From: Desulfosporosinus sp.
Lineage (GTDB): Bacteria; Bacillota; Desulfitobacteriia; Desulfitobacteriales; Desulfitobacteriaceae
DNA: 41,033 nucleotides
Assembly: GCA_027353165.1 (NCBI GenBank)
Contig: DAIEHY010000003.1
Coordinates: forward strand, 1-41,033
Direction: 5' to 3'
The notes beneath the pieces are model-generated. The model had not been told where the DNA came from, ran no database searches, and saw only the letters and a list, made by a program, of their open reading frames with translations. This document shows, one piece after another, positions 5,319-40,191 of the stretch (the stretch's first letter is position 1; each line of letters begins with the position of its first letter). A program made the translations under genes and the position numbers.

Positions 5319-5372
5319 TTTCAAAGAAAGAACCTGATAAGAATTAATTTTAACCAAGTGAGGACAATCACA

Positions 5373-5738
5373 ATGAGCAGAAGTAGCGAACAACAATTAC
5401 TTAAGAACCTTGAGGACACAATCAAGGAACGCATTACATGGAACATTCAAAACGGCCACTATTCAGACCTTGACCGTGACCAAATACTGGAAGACTTGCA
5501 AGACTCAAGCCATGAAATGATCGATGGTGAACTGCCGATTTATTATCACGATATGGCCAAATTACTCGCTGAAAATACACGATTCGCGGATGTTGACGAT
5601 TCCGGCATGCTTCCTGAAAACCCGACAGTTTGGGATATCATCACTGCGTCAGTTTACGAGTGGCTATCAGGTGAATTCTTTGAGTTAGCTTGTGACGCAG
5701 TTGACGAGTTAATGCCAGAATTGAGGTTACCCGCATGA
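5373..5738 (+). CDS. Acidic hypothetical protein, 121 aa
   Basis: Strongly acidic helical protein, unrecognised. The start is ATG 5373, just after GAGGACAATCACA; an upstream in-frame ATG (5358) would lie within the repeated leader. Its stop overlaps the next start by four bases (ATGA). The high negative charge resembles DNA-mimic or host-takeover proteins encoded in early phage operons, but nothing specific supports that. Confidence 0.65.
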   Translation: MSRSSEQQLLKNLEDTIKERITWNIQNGHYSDLDRDQILEDLQDSSHEMIDGELPIYYHDMAKLLAENTRFADVDDSGMLPENPTVWDIITASVYEWLSGEFFELACDAVDELMPELRLPA

Positions 5739-7609: not shown

Positions 7610-9007
7610 CTAGTCAACGTATTGCTTTTCTGAGAAGTCTTTACCACGGCCAGAAAAAAGGGCTTGCTCGATATTTTTAGTTGGCTTTGATGGCTGCCTG
7701 AACCATCCTTCGGGAACTTCTGCAAATGTACCTTCATTAAAAGCTAAAATTAGTTCAAAAATTCCACCAAATCGATTTTTGCGACACTTGATTACAAATT
7801 GATTCCTATAGCAGGGGTCATCTTGATACTGGTCTGGTCTATCAACGCCTAGCCATAATGCAGAACTACGATGAGAACCACTGGAATCGGCAGCGTCATG
7901 AGGCCATGGGCAACGGTCATCAATGGAACGAGCAGCATTGGCGCGGTTAATCTGAGATAAACAAATCACCACACAGTTTAACTCAATTGCCAGTTTAGAC
8001 AGCTTGGTTACGGTATCAGATTGCTTTAAGTCATTACGTTCAAAGCGACCACGATTTTCAACCAATCCCAGATAGTCAACGACAATCACGGATATCGGTT
8101 TTTCCATTGCTTTCAATCGCGCGGTAGTAAGGATAAAATCAATGTCATCCGCATTTCGACAAGTAGCCAAATCGTAAATCCTCACAGGAACAGACGCGAG
8201 TTTAGGGACAGCAGCTAATTTCTCTTGTTCGGTTAAGTCATCAAATTGCTTTCCAGCGCAGATTCCCATATGACGTTGCCAAATATGTCTGGCTTCCATT
8301 TCAATCGAAAAGAACAGCGAATGGGTGTCTGGTTGATTACGCGCAATCGCGTCCATAAGGAATATCGCAAAGCCAGTTTTACCGACACCAGCTCCAGCAG
8401 CAATTGTGATAAGGCTCTTTGCTCTAATTCCACCGCCAAGTAATTCATTCAGCTGATCGCATGTGGTAGGAAGAATAACGTCATCGGGAAGCAGTCCTTC
8501 AAAGTAGGCTTCTGTTAATTCCATTGCAGAAATCCCATCCTTGGAAGCTCTGAAGGACAGATTGTTAATCAGGTTGATATGCTCCAAAAGGCTTTCTTGC
8601 GCTGATTCAGGATTGGCAATAGCTGAAACTTCTCTCTGGGCTTCAGCCATTAAACTCATTTGCTTGCGTAATACTTTAAGCGCAATTAAGCGGTCAACAT
8701 AAGAAAGAAAGTTAGCTGTGCCAGTGAAAATTTCAGAATATTCTTGACGTACCCAGTTGTAGGCTTCGAACAAATCATTGTCATCTTTCTTAATCAGCAT
8801 CAGCACGTCAACAATCGTGAACATTTCCCCCTTCTGGAAACATTCTCGAATAATCCCAAAAAGCTGTCCGTACAAGTAATCGTAAAAGCAATCAGCGGTT
8901 AGCTTAAGCATGGCTTGCTGAACTTTCACCTCGTTAGGGTCTCCAAGGTGCATCAGGCTCATCAAAATTAAACGCTCTAATTCAGGCGACTGGTTAGGAT
9001 GTGTCAT
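7610..9007 (-). CDS. dnaB: Replicative DNA helicase, DnaB family, 465 aa
   Basis: Two-domain DnaB layout: an N-terminal helical domain (about 1-110), a linker, and a RecA-like motor. Walker A is GAGVGKT (205-211), Walker B ends VIVVDYLGL (D311), and the sensor motif is CLSQINR (349-355). The C-terminal arginine region (KCRKNRFGG) is also present. It unwinds DNA at the phage fork as a hexameric ring, presumably loaded by the adjacent initiator protein. Its ATG overlaps the initiator stop by four bases, so both are co-translated. The length is normal for the family. Confidence 0.92.
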   Translation of the reverse strand: MTHPNQSPELERLILMSLMHLGDPNEVKVQQAMLKLTADCFYDYLYGQLFGIIRECFQKGEMFTIVDVLMLIKKDDNDLFEAYNWVRQEYSEIFTGTANFLSYVDRLIALKVLRKQMSLMAEAQREVSAIANPESAQESLLEHINLINNLSFRASKDGISAMELTEAYFEGLLPDDVILPTTCDQLNELLGGGIRAKSLITIAAGAGVGKTGFAIFLMDAIARNQPDTHSLFFSIEMEARHIWQRHMGICAGKQFDDLTEQEKLAAVPKLASVPVRIYDLATCRNADDIDFILTTARLKAMEKPISVIVVDYLGLVENRGRFERNDLKQSDTVTKLSKLAIELNCVVICLSQINRANAARSIDDRCPWPHDAADSSGSHRSSALWLGVDRPDQYQDDPCYRNQFVIKCRKNRFGGIFELILAFNEGTFAEVPEGWFRQPSKPTKNIEQALFSGRGKDFSEKQYVD

Positions 9008-9837
9008 GAGTATTGATTCTCTAAAAATTTAACAAGGGTATCCCATCGGCAAAAGGTTTCCATTCCGTTTTTCTTCTTACGCCCAGCTGCGGTCGTGTAC
9101 TCACTGAGTGAGAAGTTAGGCGCATAATCTCTCATAGCAATCATGTAACGCCTGAAAGCTGGAATGTCCAAAGGCGAACCATTGGGGTCAGCTTCAGGCC
9201 ATCGCTTGATAAGCGTCTGTAAAGTTTTCTGTAAACTTGTCGATATAAGCCTAGGATGAGGCTGTGGGTTGTTCGGAAATGTCTCACGATAGACGTCAAT
9301 CATTTCCCGCATAAATTCCGTTGGCTTAGATTTGCTGCTGCTGCTGCGTGCGCTAGTAGTAATAGTATTATTACTACCTAATGAGTTAGGTTTTATTGGT
9401 ATAGGTCTGCCCGTTTGGGCAGGGGGTCTGCCCGTTTGGGCAGGGGTGTCTAATTCTGTATCACCATTGTCGGAATCGACAAATGAGTCTGGGTATAGCT
9501 TTCTGGCCTCTCTTTCAAAATATTTCCATCCTTTTTCCGTAAGCGTGTACCAATTCGTGTTATCGTATTTCTTCTTGTTAAAATGCCCGACAATGAGCAA
9601 GCCGCCTTTAATAGCACGCGCAGTAATAGTGCGTATTTGCTTAGATGAGAATCCAGGTAATCTTTTGGCATATTCAGGATATGAATTGAATGACCAGTAT
9701 TGGCCTTCGTGAAAATTGCGATGTTCAGGATTGTCTTTTGAAGCGTTGTAACCAAGCCATGATACGATGTGCCTTAAAAAATATTCCACTTCAAGGTCAA
9801 AATCTATCCAAAGTTGTTCGCTAAAATTGACGTACAT
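9004..9837 (-). CDS. Phage replication initiator / helicase loader-like protein, 277 aa
   Basis: The N-terminal half resembles the winged-helix domain of lambda O/DnaD-type initiators (FSSKQIRTITARAIKGGLLIVGHF, about residues 63-86). A flexible Ser/Pro linker follows, with the tandem repeat PAQTGRP-PAQTGRP (about 132-145), then a helical C-terminal domain (about 170-277) that probably contacts the helicase. The gene precedes dnaB with a 4-bp overlap, exactly as O-P or DnaD-DnaB pairs do. The linker-coding DNA is a cluster of palindromic repeats, the usual place for the origin in such genes. The ATG at 9837 follows ACGGAG. Confidence 0.75.
   Translation of the reverse strand: MYVNFSEQLWIDFDLEVEYFLRHIVSWLGYNASKDNPEHRNFHEGQYWSFNSYPEYAKRLPGFSSKQIRTITARAIKGGLLIVGHFNKKKYDNTNWYTLTEKGWKYFEREARKLYPDSFVDSDNGDTELDTPAQTGRPPAQTGRPIPIKPNSLGSNNTITTSARSSSSKSKPTEFMREMIDVYRETFPNNPQPHPRLISTSLQKTLQTLIKRWPEADPNGSPLDIPAFRRYMIAMRDYAPNFSLSEYTTAAGRKKKNGMETFCRWDTLVKFLENQYS
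9356..9445. repeat. Putative replication origin: AT-rich hairpin plus tandem palindromic repeats
   Basis: Two tandem 21-bp units (9404-9424 and 9425-9445), each containing the palindrome CTGCCCGTTTGGGCAG, lie beside an AT-rich 9-bp hairpin, GTAGTAATA (9356-9364) with TATTACTAC (9369-9377). All are inside the initiator gene. Iterons plus an AT-rich unwinding segment inside an O-like gene is the classic lambda-type origin design. Confidence 0.55.
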
Positions 9838-10279: not shown

Positions 10280-11791
10280 CTACTCTGAAACCTGTTCTAA
10301 TTCAATAGATAAACTGTGTCTAATGTCAGCTAATGTAGTAACATTAAACAGCTCGCCATCTTCAAATACAGTTTCCAAGTGACTTTCTTCTTCTGCTGAT
10401 TCAGTTACATCATCAACAAGATAATATCGACCAGTTTCCATATCCATTTCTACCTGAAGCAATCCGCGAGCAGACTTCTTCTTATTGCCATCACTCGCCG
10501 TGATAGGGTCTTTATAAATTGCGTGACGCTTTCCATTAATTACAGCACTGGTTGCCTTCATCGCAAACCCAAAGGTATCGCGTGTGACATACTGGTATGT
10601 GTAGCTCCCAACACCGAAAACAATGTTACTCGAAGCGAATCCCTTCTCTTCCATAATTTGCAAGATTAAAGATGCGCGGTCAACTGTAATGGCATCACCA
10701 TAGATGAGTCCTACCTTGGGGTTCAGCTCCTTATAACCTGCTGAATTGATTCGTCCTCCGAAAGTGTCCCAGAGTAATTGCAATGCTCCTTTATAGGCTG
10801 GAGTGTCACGCACCGCACACATATCGCCACATATGATATCAACAGGATTACCAGAGTCAGGACGAATAACCACCTTCCCTTCTCGGTTAACAATTTCGCT
10901 ATACAAGCTCGGAATATAGACACTTAATGTTCTCCATAAGTCATATGAATCTGACACGATTGATACTATGCCAGTGGGATATACTTCAGTAATTAACCTC
11001 TTGATGGTCTCGTACTCACCGTCAGAACCACCGCAACACATCACACTATGCTCAGTCGCTGGAACGCTGCTACCGACAATACTGGCGGTAGCACTTGCAT
11101 CATAGTGTTGATTTAATAGGTCAATTGCGCTAACACAATCCGTTCCTTTAAAGCTTGTAAGGTGAGCTGCTCCTGATAGTGTTGCGTCATTCCATCCAGA
11201 CATGCCACGGAAACTAAAGTCATGCGCCTGATAGTCTACGAATGATTCATCTGCGCCTGTCAGTTTCGCGTACTTCATAAGCAATCGTTTATATTCAAAT
11301 GCTATGGTCGCTGAAGTCATAGCTTTCCAGAGACTCGCTGAAATAATAGTTTCAAGATAATTCGTAAGCCAATAGAAATCAGGATGAGTGTTAACGATGG
11401 TCAGAACAGGTACGCCAATCGGAACACGAAACCCTTCGTTGATAGCCTTAATGCGAATCGGCAAGTAACCAAGGTCATGTAGAGCCTCCAAGTGCGAGCA
11501 ATCAAAGTCTTCAATGCCTAATGCTGTTTGAACTAAATCCTTGTATTCATCGATAACATTTCGCTTGTCACGCTGGAAGAACAGCCATTTCCACTGCTCC
11601 GACAAATAATCTTTGATGAACGATTGTATGCCAAATACGACAACTTGGTTATCAAAATCTGACAATAAACTATGATTTTGCTTAACATATCGTGGCGTGA
11701 AATTAGAATAGATTTCAGTTGTTCCTTCAGGATATTGTCTCCGATGGTCTACCTTGTAAAAATCTATGGCAAATAGGGGATTATGATACAT
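10280..11791 (-). CDS. NAMPT/NadV-like phosphoribosyltransferase (candidate Namat of NARP1), 503 aa
   Basis: Full-length member of the nicotinamide phosphoribosyltransferase family. Conserved segments in order: the substrate loop DFYKVDHRRQYPEG (10-23), DFSFRG (191-196, R195), KGTD (215-218), the catalytic-His segment PATEHS (H248), VSDSYD (279-284), IRPDSGNP (309-316, R310 and D312) and YGDAI (364-368). NadV enzymes make NMN from nicotinamide and PRPP. In the NARP1 pathway the homologous Namat joins nicotinamide to ADP-ribose pyrophosphate, giving NAD+ directly. Sequence alone cannot tell the two apart. It overlaps the PRPP-synthetase-like gene by 11 bases, fixing the pair as one module. Start ATG 11791 follows AGGAG. 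Confidence 0.9.
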   Translation of the reverse strand: MYHNPLFAIDFYKVDHRRQYPEGTTEIYSNFTPRYVKQNHSLLSDFDNQVVVFGIQSFIKDYLSEQWKWLFFQRDKRNVIDEYKDLVQTALGIEDFDCSHLEALHDLGYLPIRIKAINEGFRVPIGVPVLTIVNTHPDFYWLTNYLETIISASLWKAMTSATIAFEYKRLLMKYAKLTGADESFVDYQAHDFSFRGMSGWNDATLSGAAHLTSFKGTDCVSAIDLLNQHYDASATASIVGSSVPATEHSVMCCGGSDGEYETIKRLITEVYPTGIVSIVSDSYDLWRTLSVYIPSLYSEIVNREGKVVIRPDSGNPVDIICGDMCAVRDTPAYKGALQLLWDTFGGRINSAGYKELNPKVGLIYGDAITVDRASLILQIMEEKGFASSNIVFGVGSYTYQYVTRDTFGFAMKATSAVINGKRHAIYKDPITASDGNKKKSARGLLQVEMDMETGRYYLVDDVTESAEEESHLETVFEDGELFNVTTLADIRHSLSIELEQVSE

Positions 11792-12617
11792 TCGGAAACT
11801 CCTGAAGTATGGTTAAATTTTCATCTGATTTATACAAAGAATGATGCAAAACATGATGGCAATAAATGTGCTTGTAATGCTGAAGTAATTCACTCAAGCC
11901 TTTGCTGAATATGCCATGGGTCACATAGAGATAAAGGTTTTCTGCCCCTTGAGCCTTGAGCGTATCAGCAGCCATTAGAAAGGTTGCTCCACCATCACAG
12001 ATATCATCTACGACCATGACATCATAACCATTCACTGTTCGGTTATCGTGATTGAAATACATACTGGTAATTCGACCATTGGAAGGATTTCGATTCTTTT
12101 CCAAATACACTGGGGTTTGGAGTTCAAAATGGTTCGCAAGTTTCGATACTCGGTCTGTTGCTCCTTTGTCTGGGGCGCATAACACGAGGTTGGACAAGTC
12201 AAACTGATTGAGAAGGCCATGCCGAGCAAAGATATCATGCGCCTCCCAATGCCATACCCAATTACCTAGCAATAATTCATCAGTGAGTTCTGGGTTGTGA
12301 GCGTCCCAAATCCTGATGCCACTCACATCTAAACTGTCCAGAAATTTACAAATGAACTTTAAACTGAACGCTTCACCTTTTGCGCAGACTCTATCTTGAC
12401 GCGCGTAAGGAAGATATAGCACGTCTAAATCAATATCATAAATGCCAGCATTTACTAGAGCATTAACTGTAAGACCTAACAGAATTATGTGATCGGATTG
12501 AGAAGGATTCCATGTGAGCGTCACACGTTCTTCTTGAATGACTTCTGGTAACTTGACTTGAATCTCACCACCAGAGAAATGAAAATAATTAATCGGTTGA
12601 CCGTTCAGTAGCAGCAT
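11781..12617 (-). CDS. PRPP-synthetase-like enzyme (candidate Adps of NARP1), 278 aa
   Basis: Ribose-phosphate pyrophosphokinase fold. Visible motifs: SGGEIQV (15-21), LPYARQDR (69-76), DAHN (105-108), EKNR (173-176) in the catalytic flexible loop, and the pyrophosphate-binding loop VVDDICDGGAT (202-212). It is shorter than bacterial Prs (about 315 aa). Classical Prs makes PRPP from ribose-5-phosphate. The NARP1 enzyme Adps belongs to this family but pyrophosphorylates ADP-ribose. Pairing with a NAMPT-like gene supports NAD+ rebuilding. I prefer ATG 12617 to the in-frame TTG 12623 because of spacing from AGGGA. Confidence 0.85.
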   Translation of the reverse strand: MLLLNGQPINYFHFSGGEIQVKLPEVIQEERVTLTWNPSQSDHIILLGLTVNALVNAGIYDIDLDVLYLPYARQDRVCAKGEAFSLKFICKFLDSLDVSGIRIWDAHNPELTDELLLGNWVWHWEAHDIFARHGLLNQFDLSNLVLCAPDKGATDRVSKLANHFELQTPVYLEKNRNPSNGRITSMYFNHDNRTVNGYDVMVVDDICDGGATFLMAADTLKAQGAENLYLYVTHGIFSKGLSELLQHYKHIYCHHVLHHSLYKSDENLTILQEFPNVS

Positions 12618-12789
12618 CTTCAATATTCCCTATATCAGATTTCATTTGCAAGAAAGCAAAAAGAGTCCCAGCACGGAACCCTCTTCGATAATCTTTATTC
12701 TCTTCGGTAGCAAGTTCATCATGAAATGCCATGCTCGCGTCATTAATATTCCTTTGAAGGAATTTCTGCGTTTCGGTCAATGATTTCAT
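12589..12789 (-). CDS. Hypothetical protein, 66 aa
   Basis: Helical, charged, unrecognised. It overlaps the membrane-protein gene upstream by 47 bases and the PRPP-synthetase-like gene downstream by 29 bases, so it is embedded in the same transcript. The central YRRGFRAGTLFAFLQM (about residues 34-49) is its most distinctive stretch. Confidence 0.5.
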   Translation of the reverse strand: MKSLTETQKFLQRNINDASMAFHDELATEENKDYRRGFRAGTLFAFLQMKSDIGNIEDAATERSTD

Positions 12790-12988
12790 CGTTCTTCCTT
12801 AATACTTTAAGTAAGTGATAAGCCAGACGGTCAATGACAGCCAGCCACATCATCAAAATAATCGTGATTAAGACTATATCTGCCCACAATGGCATCGTGT
12901 TATTCGATATCGCCCATGGAAGTATCGCGCCTTGCATGAAGATAAAGCACGCCACAAATGAAATCACCTTGAATATCACCATCCTCAT
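12743..12988 (-). CDS. Small membrane protein with two helices, 81 aa
   Basis: Two hydrophobic helices (about residues 3-25 and 36-56) separated by a short loop, then a charged C-terminal tail (HLLKVLRKNDEIIDR). The ATG at 12988 overlaps the SPFH-protein stop (ATGA), so the two are translationally coupled. It may act with the SPFH protein at the inner membrane. Size and topology also fit a class II holin, but it is far from the endolysin and lies in the early operon. Confidence 0.6.
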   Translation of the reverse strand: MRMVIFKVISFVACFIFMQGAILPWAISNNTMPLWADIVLITIILMMWLAVIDRLAYHLLKVLRKNDEIIDRNAEIPSKEY

Positions 12989-13875
12989 TTCTTGCTCCCT
13001 ACGTTGATGAATGGCATAGCTCCACCAGCGTTGGTGGTCGGTAATTGCCCGTCCCATTTCAATATCGCTTGGTATTGAACAAATTCTGGAGTAATGCTTT
13101 CAGCCAGTAACTTATTCGCTTTCGCTTGAGATTCAGCATTGAGTGTAATCTGTTTAGCATTGGCTTCAGCTTCAATAAGACGCCGTTCTGCTGCTGCTTT
13201 TGCGTCAACGATAGTCTTCTGAGCTTCCGCTCGACTTGTCGCAACTTCATTTTCAACTCGCATTGCATTCTGAGAAGCTTGAATCTTCGTATTAATCGAC
13301 TCCACGACATTTGCTGGTAATTGGAATGAACCAACGAGATAAATCTTATCCACTTCGATTCCATTATCGGCTGCTTCCTTCTTCACAATTTCATTAACCT
13401 TGGAGATAAACCTCTCCTTGCCCGAACCATAAATCGCTTCAACAGTCATGGTGCTGGCAACTTCATTCATCGCATCACGCACTTGATTGTGAAGGAATGT
13501 ATTAGTGATTTCTTCTATGCCTAAACGATACTTCTGAAACACTTTAACTACGTTGTCTGGCGCAATATTGTAAGTGATTCCCGCAGAAGTGGTAATTGAT
13601 AGCCCTTCTGATGTTTGCATTGCAATAGCTTGCTCGCCAGTCCATGAATAGTTCTGCAAGAATGTAGGAAACAGATACATTTCTCGATTCCATCCCATGT
13701 AATAGCGACCTACTCCAGCCGATTGCTCCGATACGCCTTTATCACTGCCATATAAATTAACAATTACGCCACGATAACCCGCGGGAACTCGTGTCAGATT
13801 ACATCCTATGTAAAGGGCTGCAACCAGCGTGAACCCACAGGCGACTCCTGCTTGAATCTTATGCTTTAGTTTCAT
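12985..13875 (-). CDS. SPFH/Band 7 (prohibitin/stomatin-like) membrane protein, 296 aa
   Basis: N-terminal membrane anchor (about residues 9-26), then an SPFH domain beginning RVPAGYRGVIVNLYG (29-43) and running to about 200. A long Ala/Glu-rich coiled coil (about 195-265: EVATSRAEAQKTIVDAKAAA) follows, and then a Gly-rich tail. This is the layout of HflK/HflC/prohibitins, which form large inner-membrane rings and in bacteria shield or control the FtsH protease. In phages, SPFH proteins may protect early products such as lysis-lysogeny regulators or alter the membrane; that role is inferred. It is directly downstream of the Cro-like gene and coupled to a two-helix membrane protein. Confidence 0.85.
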   Translation of the reverse strand: MKLKHKIQAGVACGFTLVAALYIGCNLTRVPAGYRGVIVNLYGSDKGVSEQSAGVGRYYMGWNREMYLFPTFLQNYSWTGEQAIAMQTSEGLSITTSAGITYNIAPDNVVKVFQKYRLGIEEITNTFLHNQVRDAMNEVASTMTVEAIYGSGKERFISKVNEIVKKEAADNGIEVDKIYLVGSFQLPANVVESINTKIQASQNAMRVENEVATSRAEAQKTIVDAKAAAERRLIEAEANAKQITLNAESQAKANKLLAESITPEFVQYQAILKWDGQLPTTNAGGAMPFINVGSKK

Positions 13876-13898: not shown

Positions 13899-14114
13899 TT
13901 ATTTCGTCTTAGGCTTCTTGGGATGCCTCACTAGATAAGGGTCTTCATCATCGGGCAATAATTCGCCCTCGGTCACGGTGGCAATTTTAAACTGTTGCTT
14001 CCAAGGAATATAACCCTGCTTCTTCCACTTCGTCATATTCTGTGATGCGATATCGATTGCTTTGCAAGCTTGATGTAGATTACCAAACCATGCAACTACT
14101 TCTTCAATAGTCAC
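13899..14114 (-). CDS. Cro-like transcriptional regulator, 71 aa, GTG start
   Basis: Short helix-turn-helix protein of the Cro type: EEVVAWFGNLHQACKAIDIA followed by SQNMTKWKKQGYIP and KQQFKIATVTEGEL. This matches phage Cro proteins in length and in the closing I-x-x-x-T-x-G-E-L. I place the start at GTG 14114, because GGAG lies 6 nt upstream and the leftward TATAAT at 14142-14147 predicts a short leader. Longer in-frame starts (up to 14291) would cross the promoter and the divergent gene. It is the natural binder of the palindromes at its own and other promoters. Confidence 0.8.
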   Translation of the reverse strand: MTIEEVVAWFGNLHQACKAIDIASQNMTKWKKQGYIPWKQQFKIATVTEGELLPDDEDPYLVRHPKKPKTK

Positions 14115-14141
14115 GGTTATCTCCAAATAGATTTTCATAAC

Positions 14142-14203
14142 ATTATAATCTAAACCCTGTTTGAATTCCATAGATTGATTTAAACCTGAGTTGCATACAT
14201 AAT
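14142..14203. promoter_or_regulatory. Divergent control region with two operators and back-to-back promoters
   Basis: Rightward: TTGATT (14175-14180), 17 bp, CATAAT (14198-14203), for the YqaJ-RecT-SSB operon. Leftward: TATAAT on the minus strand (forward 14142-14147) with a weak -35, for the Cro-like gene. Two palindromes, 14150-14165 (CTAAACCCTGTTTGAA) and 14180-14195 (TTAAACCTGAGTTGCA), each end 2 bp before the respective -10 box. This symmetric layout is that of a phage genetic switch. Confidence 0.75.
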
Positions 14204-18027: not shown

Positions 18028-18100
18028 GTTATCTGGCAGGATTCGAACCTGCTACACCAAGCTCCAAATGCTTGTGCTCTACCAATTGAGCTACAGTTAT
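18028..18100 (-). tRNA. tRNA-Gln (anticodon TTG)
   Basis: Cloverleaf on the minus strand. D-arm TAGCTCAATTGGTAGAGC, anticodon stem CAAGC/GCTTG with loop ATTTGGA (anticodon TTG), 5-nt variable loop, T-arm GCAGG-TTCGAAT-CCTGC. The acceptor stem (ATAACTG with CAGATAA) has two mismatches, including position 1-72, so function may be reduced or host-like modification required. CCA is not encoded. It reads CAA codons. Confidence 0.8.
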
Positions 18101-39027: not shown

Positions 39028-39113
39028 TGGTGGAGAAGCTAGGATTCGAACCTAGACGGACTAGCCGACCGCAGGGTTACAGCCTGGTGCCCTTCCTAAT
39101 AGGCGTCTTCTCC
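39028..39113 (-). tRNA. tRNA-Tyr (anticodon GTA)
   Basis: Class II tRNA with a long variable arm. Perfect acceptor stem GGAGAAG/CTTCTCC, anticodon loop CTGTAAC (GTA), T-arm CTAGG-TTCGAAT-CCTAG, discriminator A and encoded CCA. The C-C mismatch at the top of the anticodon stem is the only flaw. Confidence 0.9.
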
Positions 39114-39118
39114 GAAGG

Positions 39119-39193
39119 TGGTTGCGGGAGAAGGAGTTGAACCTTCGACATGAGGAGTATGAACCATCTGTTCTACCACTGAACTACCCCGCG
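39119..39193 (-). tRNA. tRNA-Met (anticodon CAT), initiator-like acceptor end
   Basis: Starts CGCGGGG and ends TCCCGCA-A-CCA, giving the C1-A72 mismatch diagnostic of bacterial initiator tRNA-fMet. Anticodon loop TTCATAC reads CAT. However, the anticodon stem (GATGG/TCCTC) lacks the three G-C pairs of initiators and has one mismatch, and the D-stem pair 11-24 is T-A, of the elongator type. So it is a mosaic: initiator acceptor end on an atypical body. CCA is encoded. Confidence 0.85.
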
Positions 39194-39201
39194 ATTATCA
39201 T

Positions 39202-39276
39202 TGGCTCTGGTGGCTGGATTCGAACCAACATTGTACAGATTAACAGTCTGCTGCCTTACCTATAGGCTACACCAGA
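39202..39276 (-). tRNA. tRNA-Asn (anticodon GTT)
   Basis: Regular cloverleaf: acceptor TCTGGTG/CACCAGA, D-arm GCCT/AGGC, anticodon stem GCAGA/TCTGT with loop CTGTTAA (GTT), T-arm GTTGG-TTCGAAT-CCAGC, discriminator G as expected for Asn, and encoded CCA. Confidence 0.93.
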
Positions 39277-39281
39277 ATAAC

Positions 39282-40100
39282 TTAAATCCGCTCAGGATGC
39301 TTAATATCCTTCGCCATCTTATACACCGCTTCTAACAACATATAATGCCTGAAAATAGCGGCAAATGGCCGATAATACGGATGTGTTACAACTGTACCAA
39401 TATGCGGAAACATTGTCACATAAATTGGCGCAGTTAATGGCGCATTCTGTATATGTTCCCAGCTATCATGCCACCACATGTTCGTTGTCGCGTCAAATGC
39501 TTGCCACTTTCCGCCTATGTAAGCCTCATTGAACACATGACCTGGGTTCATCATGAAGCGATTCTTAATTCCTGCCTTCGTTAATAGCATGTGTAGCATA
39601 TTAGCATGGTCAGTACAGCAACCAATTCGTGAAGCAATCATCTGCGGAATGTGCTTGCTGATGTCCTCTTCAGGATTAAATATTCCGCCAGGATGGTCTT
39701 CATTCTTGAAAACGCAACCTACTTGCGAAACCTTCACAGGATTGCCATAACCCCACATGTGCGCAGTGACGTTCATCATGTAGAGCGTCAATAGCAAATC
39801 TGGGTCGCTTACATGCCATTCACGATTAATCTCATCTTGATAGATATCAAATTGCATTCTAACCGCTTCATACAAGGCATCTTCTGTAAGGATAGGACTA
39901 CGAGTAAGAAATTCTCGGTCAAACCATTCGCTCTTGTGGTTCACCGATAAATCTTGAATCTTAATGGTCTGAATGCGCGTAAAATCTACAATAGGCAGCG
40001 GAACCGCAGCAGCTAATTCGTGCCGAAATGCGTACCCTCCTGAAATCCCTATCATACTCACTGCCAGACACAGAATTCCTGGAATCAATAATTTTCTCAT
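39282..40100 (-). CDS. Secreted/anchored transglutaminase-like cysteine enzyme, 272 aa
   Basis: N-terminal signal or anchor helix (about residues 4-22). The C-terminal half has the transglutaminase-like core: GCCTDHANMLHMLLTKAGI (160-178, C162 the likely nucleophile), GHVFNEAYIGGKW (187-199, H188) and FDATTNMWW (202-210, D203). This Cys-His-Asp triad serves proteases, peptide cyclases or crosslinkers. The substrate is unknown; cell-envelope peptide or host-surface modification is plausible given the signal helix. It sits between tRNA genes in an accessory position. Start ATG 40100; ribosome site is weak (AGGGACATC). Confidence 0.8.
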   Translation of the reverse strand: MRKLLIPGILCLAVSMIGISGGYAFRHELAAAVPLPIVDFTRIQTIKIQDLSVNHKSEWFDREFLTRSPILTEDALYEAVRMQFDIYQDEINREWHVSDPDLLLTLYMMNVTAHMWGYGNPVKVSQVGCVFKNEDHPGGIFNPEEDISKHIPQMIASRIGCCTDHANMLHMLLTKAGIKNRFMMNPGHVFNEAYIGGKWQAFDATTNMWWHDSWEHIQNAPLTAPIYVTMFPHIGTVVTHPYYRPFAAIFRHYMLLEAVYKMAKDIKHPERI

Positions 40101-40119
40101 GATGTCCCTATCAACATTG

Positions 40120-40191
40120 TGCTACGCCTAGGAGTCGAACCTAGAACTTCCGCTTACAAGGCGCCTGCGCTGCCAATTGCGCCAGTATAGC
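40120..40191 (-). tRNA. tRNA-Thr (anticodon TGT)
   Basis: Acceptor GCTATAC/GCGTAGC with one wobble and one mismatch, D-stem GCGC/GCGC, anticodon loop CTTGTAA (TGT), T-arm CTAGG-TTCGACT-CCTAG, discriminator A. CCA is not encoded. The upper two pairs of the anticodon stem are mismatched, so it is more divergent than the other tRNAs. Confidence 0.8.

What the first reader, a model, noticed from the sequence alone, without database searches (positions are those of the whole stretch)
10280..12617. Candidate NARP1-type NAD+ reconstitution operon
A PRPP-synthetase-like gene and a NAMPT-like gene overlap by 11 bp. This is the gene pair of NARP1, in which Adps converts ADP-ribose to ADP-ribose pyrophosphate and Namat adds nicotinamide, restoring NAD+ that Thoeris, DSR or SIR2-type defences have destroyed. 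Classical NadV salvage (PRPP plus nicotinamide to NMN) is the alternative. The pair sits in the early operon directly under Cro-like control, the right time for counter-defence.
Basis: partly seen in the sequence, partly recalled or inferred. Interest (0 to 1): 0.8.

Follow-up and report, generated by a model that had tools for sequence, protein, structure and literature searches.

The report
Phage NARP1 NAD+-rebuilding gene pair
A small bacterial virus carries the two-gene NARP1 kit, which is predicted to rebuild NAD+ from its fragments when the host destroys NAD+ to stop infection; this is a well-supported new example of a known counter-defence system, not a new kind of system.

Summary
ORF 11781-12617(-), 278 aa, PRPP-synthetase-like, overlaps ORF 10280-11791(-), 503 aa, Nampt-like, by 11 bp. 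The contig is a ~41 kb tailed phage binned into a MAG.

The NARP1 reading holds. The Nampt-like protein sits inside the Namat clade, apart from canonical Nampt/NadV, carries the published Namat signature exactly (GSYTYQYVTRD, both adenine-stacking aromatics), keeps nearly all published NAD+ contacts, and its model matches the solved Namat best (9w5x, TM 0.96). The partner keeps Prs catalytic residues but groups with Namat-adjacent Adps proteins, not with Prs. Across 81 representatives the clamp aromatic and an Adps gene in the same locus go together (73 of 75 against 0 of 6). Haemophilus ducreyi NadV, an NMN maker inside the same clade, has lost both. The contig has no NMN adenylyltransferase.

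In its phage lineage the pair is an accessory unit between cro and the replication genes, present or absent as a whole (5 of 16 long relatives). An Ocr-like DNA mimic elsewhere fits a counter-defence theme.

Not shown: enzyme activity, defence countered, host, expression timing. The SCL half of the clamp is atypical (Lys-Gln). New member of a known kind.

The parts
11781..12617 (-). Adps-like gene (ADP-ribose to ADP-ribose pyrophosphate, predicted), 278 aa; possible TTG start at 12623
10280..11791 (-). Namat-like gene (nicotinamide ADP-ribose transferase, predicted), 503 aa
10577..10609 (-). Namat selectivity-clamp helix motif GSYTYQYVTRD (residues 395-405); Y397 and Y401 align with adenine-stacking F392 and Y396 of SPbetaL1 Namat
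   Evidence: invariant in the six near relatives aligned
11678..11689 (-). Namat selectivity-clamp loop residues Y35-V36-K37-Q38; K37 aligns with R40 of SPbetaL1 Namat
11979..12008 (-). Adps PRPP-loop motif DDICDGGATF (residues 204-213), Adps-type and not Prs-type (DDIIDTAGTI)
12090..12098 (-). Adps K174-N-R176, aligned with the catalytic Lys/Arg loop of Prs; K and R invariant in 48 Adps
11781..11791 (-). 11-bp overlap of adps and namat (translational coupling inferred)
12985..13875 (-). SPFH/Band 7 protein upstream in the same gene run; found in the window and 4 of the 5 other pair-bearing relatives, in none of 6 pair-less ones; link to NARP1 unproven
13899..14171 (-). Cro-like regulator at the head of the gene run (ORF can extend to 14291)
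7610..9837 (-). replication initiator and DnaB-like helicase downstream, the other border of the variable cro-to-rep interval

Best explanation
This is a NARP1 operon. The Adps-like enzyme is predicted to transfer pyrophosphate from ATP to ADP-ribose, giving ADP-ribose pyrophosphate. The Namat-like enzyme is predicted to join that product to nicotinamide, giving NAD+ directly. ADP-ribose and nicotinamide are what TIR, SIR2 and SEFIR defence NADases leave behind, so the phage can refill NAD+ during infection. Shown here: both genes, their overlap, the intact active sites, the Namat adenine-clamp helix, the clade placements, the co-inheritance as one unit and the absence of an NMN adenylyltransferase on the contig. 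Inferred: the reactions, the counter-defence role and early expression.
For: Signature GSYTYQYVTRD fits the Namat consensus GSX-Phi1-X-Phi2-X-Phi3-TRD with aromatics at positions 3 and 7. Of the other published NAD+ contacts all are kept (D10, Y12, F192, S193, R195, D218, A245, R310, D312, G365, D366, A367, G395, S396, T403, R404, D405) except SCL R40, which is K37. Best solved match is SPbetaL1 Namat: phmmer 521 bits against 454 for the next, H. ducreyi NadV, and 250 for human Nampt; Foldseek TMt 0.96 with NAM-bound Namat. Tree placement inside the Namat clade. Adps partner: Prs fold, catalytic H107, K174, R176, D204, D205 invariant among 48, clade apart from Prs. Clamp aromatic and Adps in the same locus: 73 of 75 with, 0 of 6 without. 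No CTP_transf_like gene on contig C214. Both genes present in 5 and both absent in 11 of 16 long relatives, in one variable interval. The MAG's genus does carry TIR and SIR2 domains (6 of 13 and 5 of 13 genomes).
Against: No assay. Namat enzymes also make NMN from PRPP in vitro (PMC12774641), so sequence cannot exclude PRPP use in vivo. H. ducreyi NadV lies inside the same clade and makes NMN, so clade alone is not proof. The SCL fourth residue (Q38), expected to stack when the third is Lys, is not aromatic and varies among near relatives (Q, K, E, H). Substrate determinants of Adps are not described in the papers held. The MAG itself shows no TIR_2 or SIR2_2 hit (67% complete), and the phage-host link is by binning only.
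Confidence: 0.9

Rival explanations
1. Canonical NAD+ salvage: a phage Prs makes PRPP and a NadV makes NMN, which the host adenylates to NAD+.
For: The proteins are homologous to Prs and Nampt. Namat retains PRPP-dependent NMN synthesis in vitro. Acinetobacter homologues at about 55% identity sit beside a bifunctional NMNAT/Nudix gene, and H. ducreyi NadV of the same clade makes NMN in E. coli (PMC7384224).
Against: Canonical Nampt/NadV have GGA/GLLQ in place of the clamp and lie across a 100* branch. H. ducreyi NadV has lost the clamp (GAQTYQRNTRD) and has no Adps gene on its plasmid. The partner is Adps-type, not Prs-type, and the MAG already has a full-length Prs (L310).
Confidence: 0.07
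2. NARP2-type pathway: Nampt plus a phage NMN adenylyltransferase.
For: Known in phages; BcepSaruman and Milchi carry a cytidylyltransferase-family gene upstream of Nampt.
Against: No CTP_transf_like gene on the contig; the window enzyme is not in the canonical Nampt branch.
Confidence: 0.01
3. A working NARP1 pair whose main role is general NAD+ supply during phage growth rather than rescue from a defence system (a rival on function, compatible with NARP1 chemistry).
For: NARP1 homologues also occur in bacterial chromosomes with no known defence role (PMC12774641).
Against: Presence or absence as a unit among close phage relatives and an Ocr-like anti-restriction gene in the same phage fit a counter-defence accessory better.
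Confidence: 0.12

Closest known systems
NARP1 of Bacillus phage SPbetaL1 (Adps + Namat; PDB 9w5w, 9w5x; PMC12774641)
   Same: Gene order adps then namat; Namat about 50% identical, same clamp helix, same NAM/ribose contacts, model TMt 0.96
   Different: Adps is divergent and lies in another part of the Adps tree; clamp loop Lys-Gln in place of Arg and longer; different phage type
NARP1-type pairs of ICP1, Bas62 and mycobacteriophage Chaser
   Same: Adps next to Namat, aromatic clamp residue, Adps motif DDICDGG or close (ICP1 DDICDGA)
   Different: Larger phages (77-145 kb); window lineage is ~41 kb; the mycobacteriophage DyoEdafos NARP1 operon has a RyR-domain gene inserted (PMC13232231), and no RyR domain was found in the neighbouring window ORFs scanned
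Haemophilus ducreyi NadV (pNAD1; PDB 9ke8, 9keo)
   Same: Same clade, 48% identity, same catalytic residues
   Different: Clamp aromatics replaced by Gln and Arg; no Adps partner; makes NMN
Canonical Nampt/NadV (human, Cupriavidus, KVP40-like phage phi-ST2)
   Same: Fold and NAM/PRPP chemistry
   Different: GGA/GLLQ instead of the clamp, no Adps in the locus, across a 100* branch

Membership tests
NARP1 | adjacent adps and namat genes in one operon | tested here: met
   Overlap of 11 bp, same strand
NARP1 (Namat) | SCH motif GSX-Phi-X-Phi-X-Phi-TRD with aromatics at positions 3 and 7 | tested here: met
   GSYTYQYVTRD, invariant in six near relatives
NARP1 (Namat) | SCL third residue Arg, Lys or Tyr; with Lys/Tyr the fourth residue stacks on adenine | tested here: inconclusive
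   Third is Lys (met); fourth is Gln, not aromatic and variable in relatives. Fourth residues after Lys/Tyr vary widely in the family
NARP1 (Namat) | catalytic and NAM/ribose contact residues | tested here: met
   All aligned contacts conserved; catalytic His in PATEHSV, H248 invariant among 43
NARP1 (Namat) | falls in the Namat clade, not the canonical Nampt clade | tested here: met
   caveat: H. ducreyi NadV is in the same clade
NARP1 (Adps) | Prs fold and catalytic residues, but separate from Prs | tested here: met
   Prs sample only six sequences of one order
NARP1 | ADP-ribose + ATP + nicotinamide to NAD+ | not testable with these tools
   Needs purified proteins
NARP1 | relieves an NAD+-depleting defence | not testable with these tools
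   Needs infection or toxicity-rescue assay
Canonical NadV/Nampt salvage | Nampt-type SCH-equivalent (no adenine-stacking aromatics) | tested here: not met
   Clamp aromatics present
Canonical NadV/Nampt salvage | uses PRPP to make NMN as its main reaction | not testable with these tools
   Needs enzyme assay
NARP2 | phage NMN adenylyltransferase with Nampt | tested here: not met
   No CTP_transf_like hit on contig C214

The most novel reading that the evidence does not exclude
In this phage lineage NARP1 is part of a larger module: the SPFH/Band 7 protein and the small ORF just upstream work with Adps and Namat, for instance by holding them at the membrane, and the divergent Adps has shifted substrate range (for example towards other ADP-ribose derivatives).
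Probability: 0.06. Interest if true: 0.6.

Novelty: new member of a known kind. Interest (0 to 1): 0.27.

Why it matters
It puts a complete NARP1 pair in a ~41 kb phage lineage with no megablast match among the phage records searched, where close relatives with and without the pair exist: a good natural setting for testing what the pair is for. The comparison also sharpens how to tell NARP1 from ordinary NadV salvage by sequence (clamp aromatic plus Adps partner), with H. ducreyi NadV as a natural loss of both.

Tried and rejected
PADLOC: no match for Namat; weak matches of the Adps to PsyrT/ShosT (about 20 bits) rejected, since the Prs and phage Prs-like models score far higher. Rfam: only tRNAs. 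Promoter and terminator scans: no excess over shuffles, so they do not support the timing claim. RyR-domain (RyDEP) partner as in DyoEdafos: no Pfam hit in neighbouring ORFs. A general SPFH-NARP1 link: SPFH near only 6 of 55 dereplicated viral Namat loci, so weak outside this lineage. The primary NARP1 paper (10.1038/s41586-024-07986-w) is not held; its content is taken from PMC12774641 and PMC13232231. First Adps trees lacked Prs because my motif filter missed the host-type Prs; repaired. My first motif scan used a wrong spacing; repaired. Megablast of 24 kb of the window against phage records: no match. TerL and Namat relatives in the MAG's genus: none but the window itself, so the host assignment rests on binning alone. 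Papers on Acinetobacter NadV kinetics were looked for and not found among those held.

Full report
1. What is there. The window is the whole of contig C214 (41,033 bp) of a 67%-complete MAG and codes for a tailed phage: terminase, portal, capsid, head closure, RecE/RecT, SSB, endolysin, DnaB. On the minus strand run a Cro-like regulator, an SPFH protein, two small ORFs, the Prs-like ORF 11781-12617, the Nampt-like ORF 10280-11791, a small ORF, a replication initiator and DnaB. The two genes of interest overlap by exactly 11 bp. No terminal repeat was found at the contig ends.

2. The Nampt-like protein is a Namat by nearly every sequence test available. The 2026 structure paper on SPbetaL1 Namat (PMC12774641) defines a selectivity clamp that lets Namat take ADP-ribose pyrophosphate: a helix motif GSX-Phi-X-Phi-X-Phi-TRD with aromatics at positions 3 and 7, and a loop residue. 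The window has GSYTYQYVTRD (Y397, Y401), and all other published contacts are kept, with the loop Arg replaced by Lys37-Gln38. The loop half is therefore only partly met; the paper reports that single clamp mutations cost 1.3-1.7-fold. The best solved relative is that Namat (521 bits), and the AlphaFold2 model (pLDDT 92) matches it at TMt 0.96. In a tree of 81 representatives the window protein lies deep in the Namat clade, apart from Cupriavidus, KVP40-like and NARP2-like Nampt by a 100* branch of length 1.5.

3. A natural control. H. ducreyi NadV (pNAD1; PDB 9ke8/9keo, titled HdNadV) is 48% identical to the window protein and lies in the same clade, yet makes NMN in E. coli (PMC7384224). It has GAQTYQRNTRD, both aromatics lost, and no Adps gene on its plasmid. 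So clade alone would not decide, but clamp plus partner does: of 75 representatives with an aromatic at position 3, 73 have an Adps homologue in the same locus; of 6 without, none has. These counts are of related sequences, and the Fisher value (8.6e-8) should not be read as a test on independent events.

4. The Prs-like protein is an Adps by family placement. It has the Prs fold (model pLDDT 94.6; Foldseek best hits all PRPP synthetases, TMq about 0.7-0.8). The residues H107, K174, R176, D204 and D205 are invariant in 48 homologues. But it has the Adps-type loop DDICDGGATF where the MAG's Prs has DDIIDTAGTI, lacks the Prs IQGFF segment, and in a tree the 66 Namat-adjacent proteins form one side of a 100* branch against six Prs from the MAG's order. 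The MAG keeps its own full-length Prs (L310). What makes Adps choose ADP-ribose is not described in the papers held, so this is family placement, not proof of substrate.

5. Not NARP2. No CTP_transf_like (NMN adenylyltransferase-type) gene is on the contig, whereas phages with canonical Nampt in my set (BcepSaruman, Milchi) carry one beside it.

6. The pair is an accessory unit. Of 16 long contigs reached through TerL relatives of the window (51-91% identity), 5 carry both genes and 11 carry neither; none carries only one (these are virus records that may be incomplete). In the 5 pair-bearing relatives the pair sits between cro and the replication genes, and in the pair-less relatives where both borders could be mapped that interval is about 0.5-1.2 kb instead of about 4 kb. 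The SPFH gene is present in the window and in four of the five other pair-bearing relatives and in none of six pair-less ones, but it is near only 6 of 55 dereplicated viral Namat loci in general, so I do not make it part of NARP1.

7. Counter-defence setting. The phage also has an Ocr-like DNA mimic (5358-5738 +, PF08684 E 1.4e-8). Genomes of the MAG's genus carry TIR_2 (6 of 13) and SIR2_2 (5 of 13) domains, so NAD+-depleting defences are plausible in the host group, but the MAG itself has no hit and the phage-host link is by binning. No genome of the genus has a Namat homologue or a TerL relative outside this contig.

8. Verdict. Activity, substrate, timing and the defence overcome are not shown. 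The interest score is low because phage NARP1 is established and common: 1,936 phage records match the Namat query at E 1e-5, canonical Nampt included.

Noticed in passing
L369:13992-16445 (IMGVR_UViG_3300044648_000136): The Namat of this close relative is interrupted in frame between D and S of the RPD|SG active-site motif by an intein-like insert of about 310 aa (starts CYSEDTSI, has TPNH, ends VCGN before Ser); Pfam gave no Hint match at 0.01.
   Followed up: partly
5358-5738 (+): Ocr-like DNA mimic (PF08684, E 1.4e-8), a likely anti-restriction gene, with homologues in some relatives.
   Followed up: partly
12985-13875 (-): SPFH/Band 7 protein gene that tracks with the NARP1 pair in this phage lineage; an SPFH gene also lies next to a canonical Nampt with a NUDIX gene on Sinorhizobium plasmid pLM21S1.
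   Followed up: partly
L003, L238-L263: Acinetobacter chromosomes carry an Adps-like gene, a clamp-bearing Namat-like gene (GSFTYNYLTRD, GSYTYNYLTRD) and, in L003, an NMNAT/ADPR-pyrophosphatase gene; the gene called NadV there may be a Namat.
   Followed up: partly
L229-L308: Clamp-bearing Namat homologues are common in bacterial genomes (Bacteroidota, Acinetobacter and others); 69 of 80 have an Adps homologue in the same ~11 kb locus, in some Bacteroidota several kb away.
   Followed up: partly
L003 (CAKLQF020000015.1): Filed as 'Acinetobacter phage MD-2021a', but the genes around the pair are bacterial (ferric enterobactin transport, TauE, AraC); probably a chromosome fragment.
   Followed up: no
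39028-40191 (-): Four tRNA genes (Tyr, Met, Asn, Thr) around a transglutaminase-like ORF (39282-40100), and a lone tRNA-Gln at 18028-18100.
   Followed up: no
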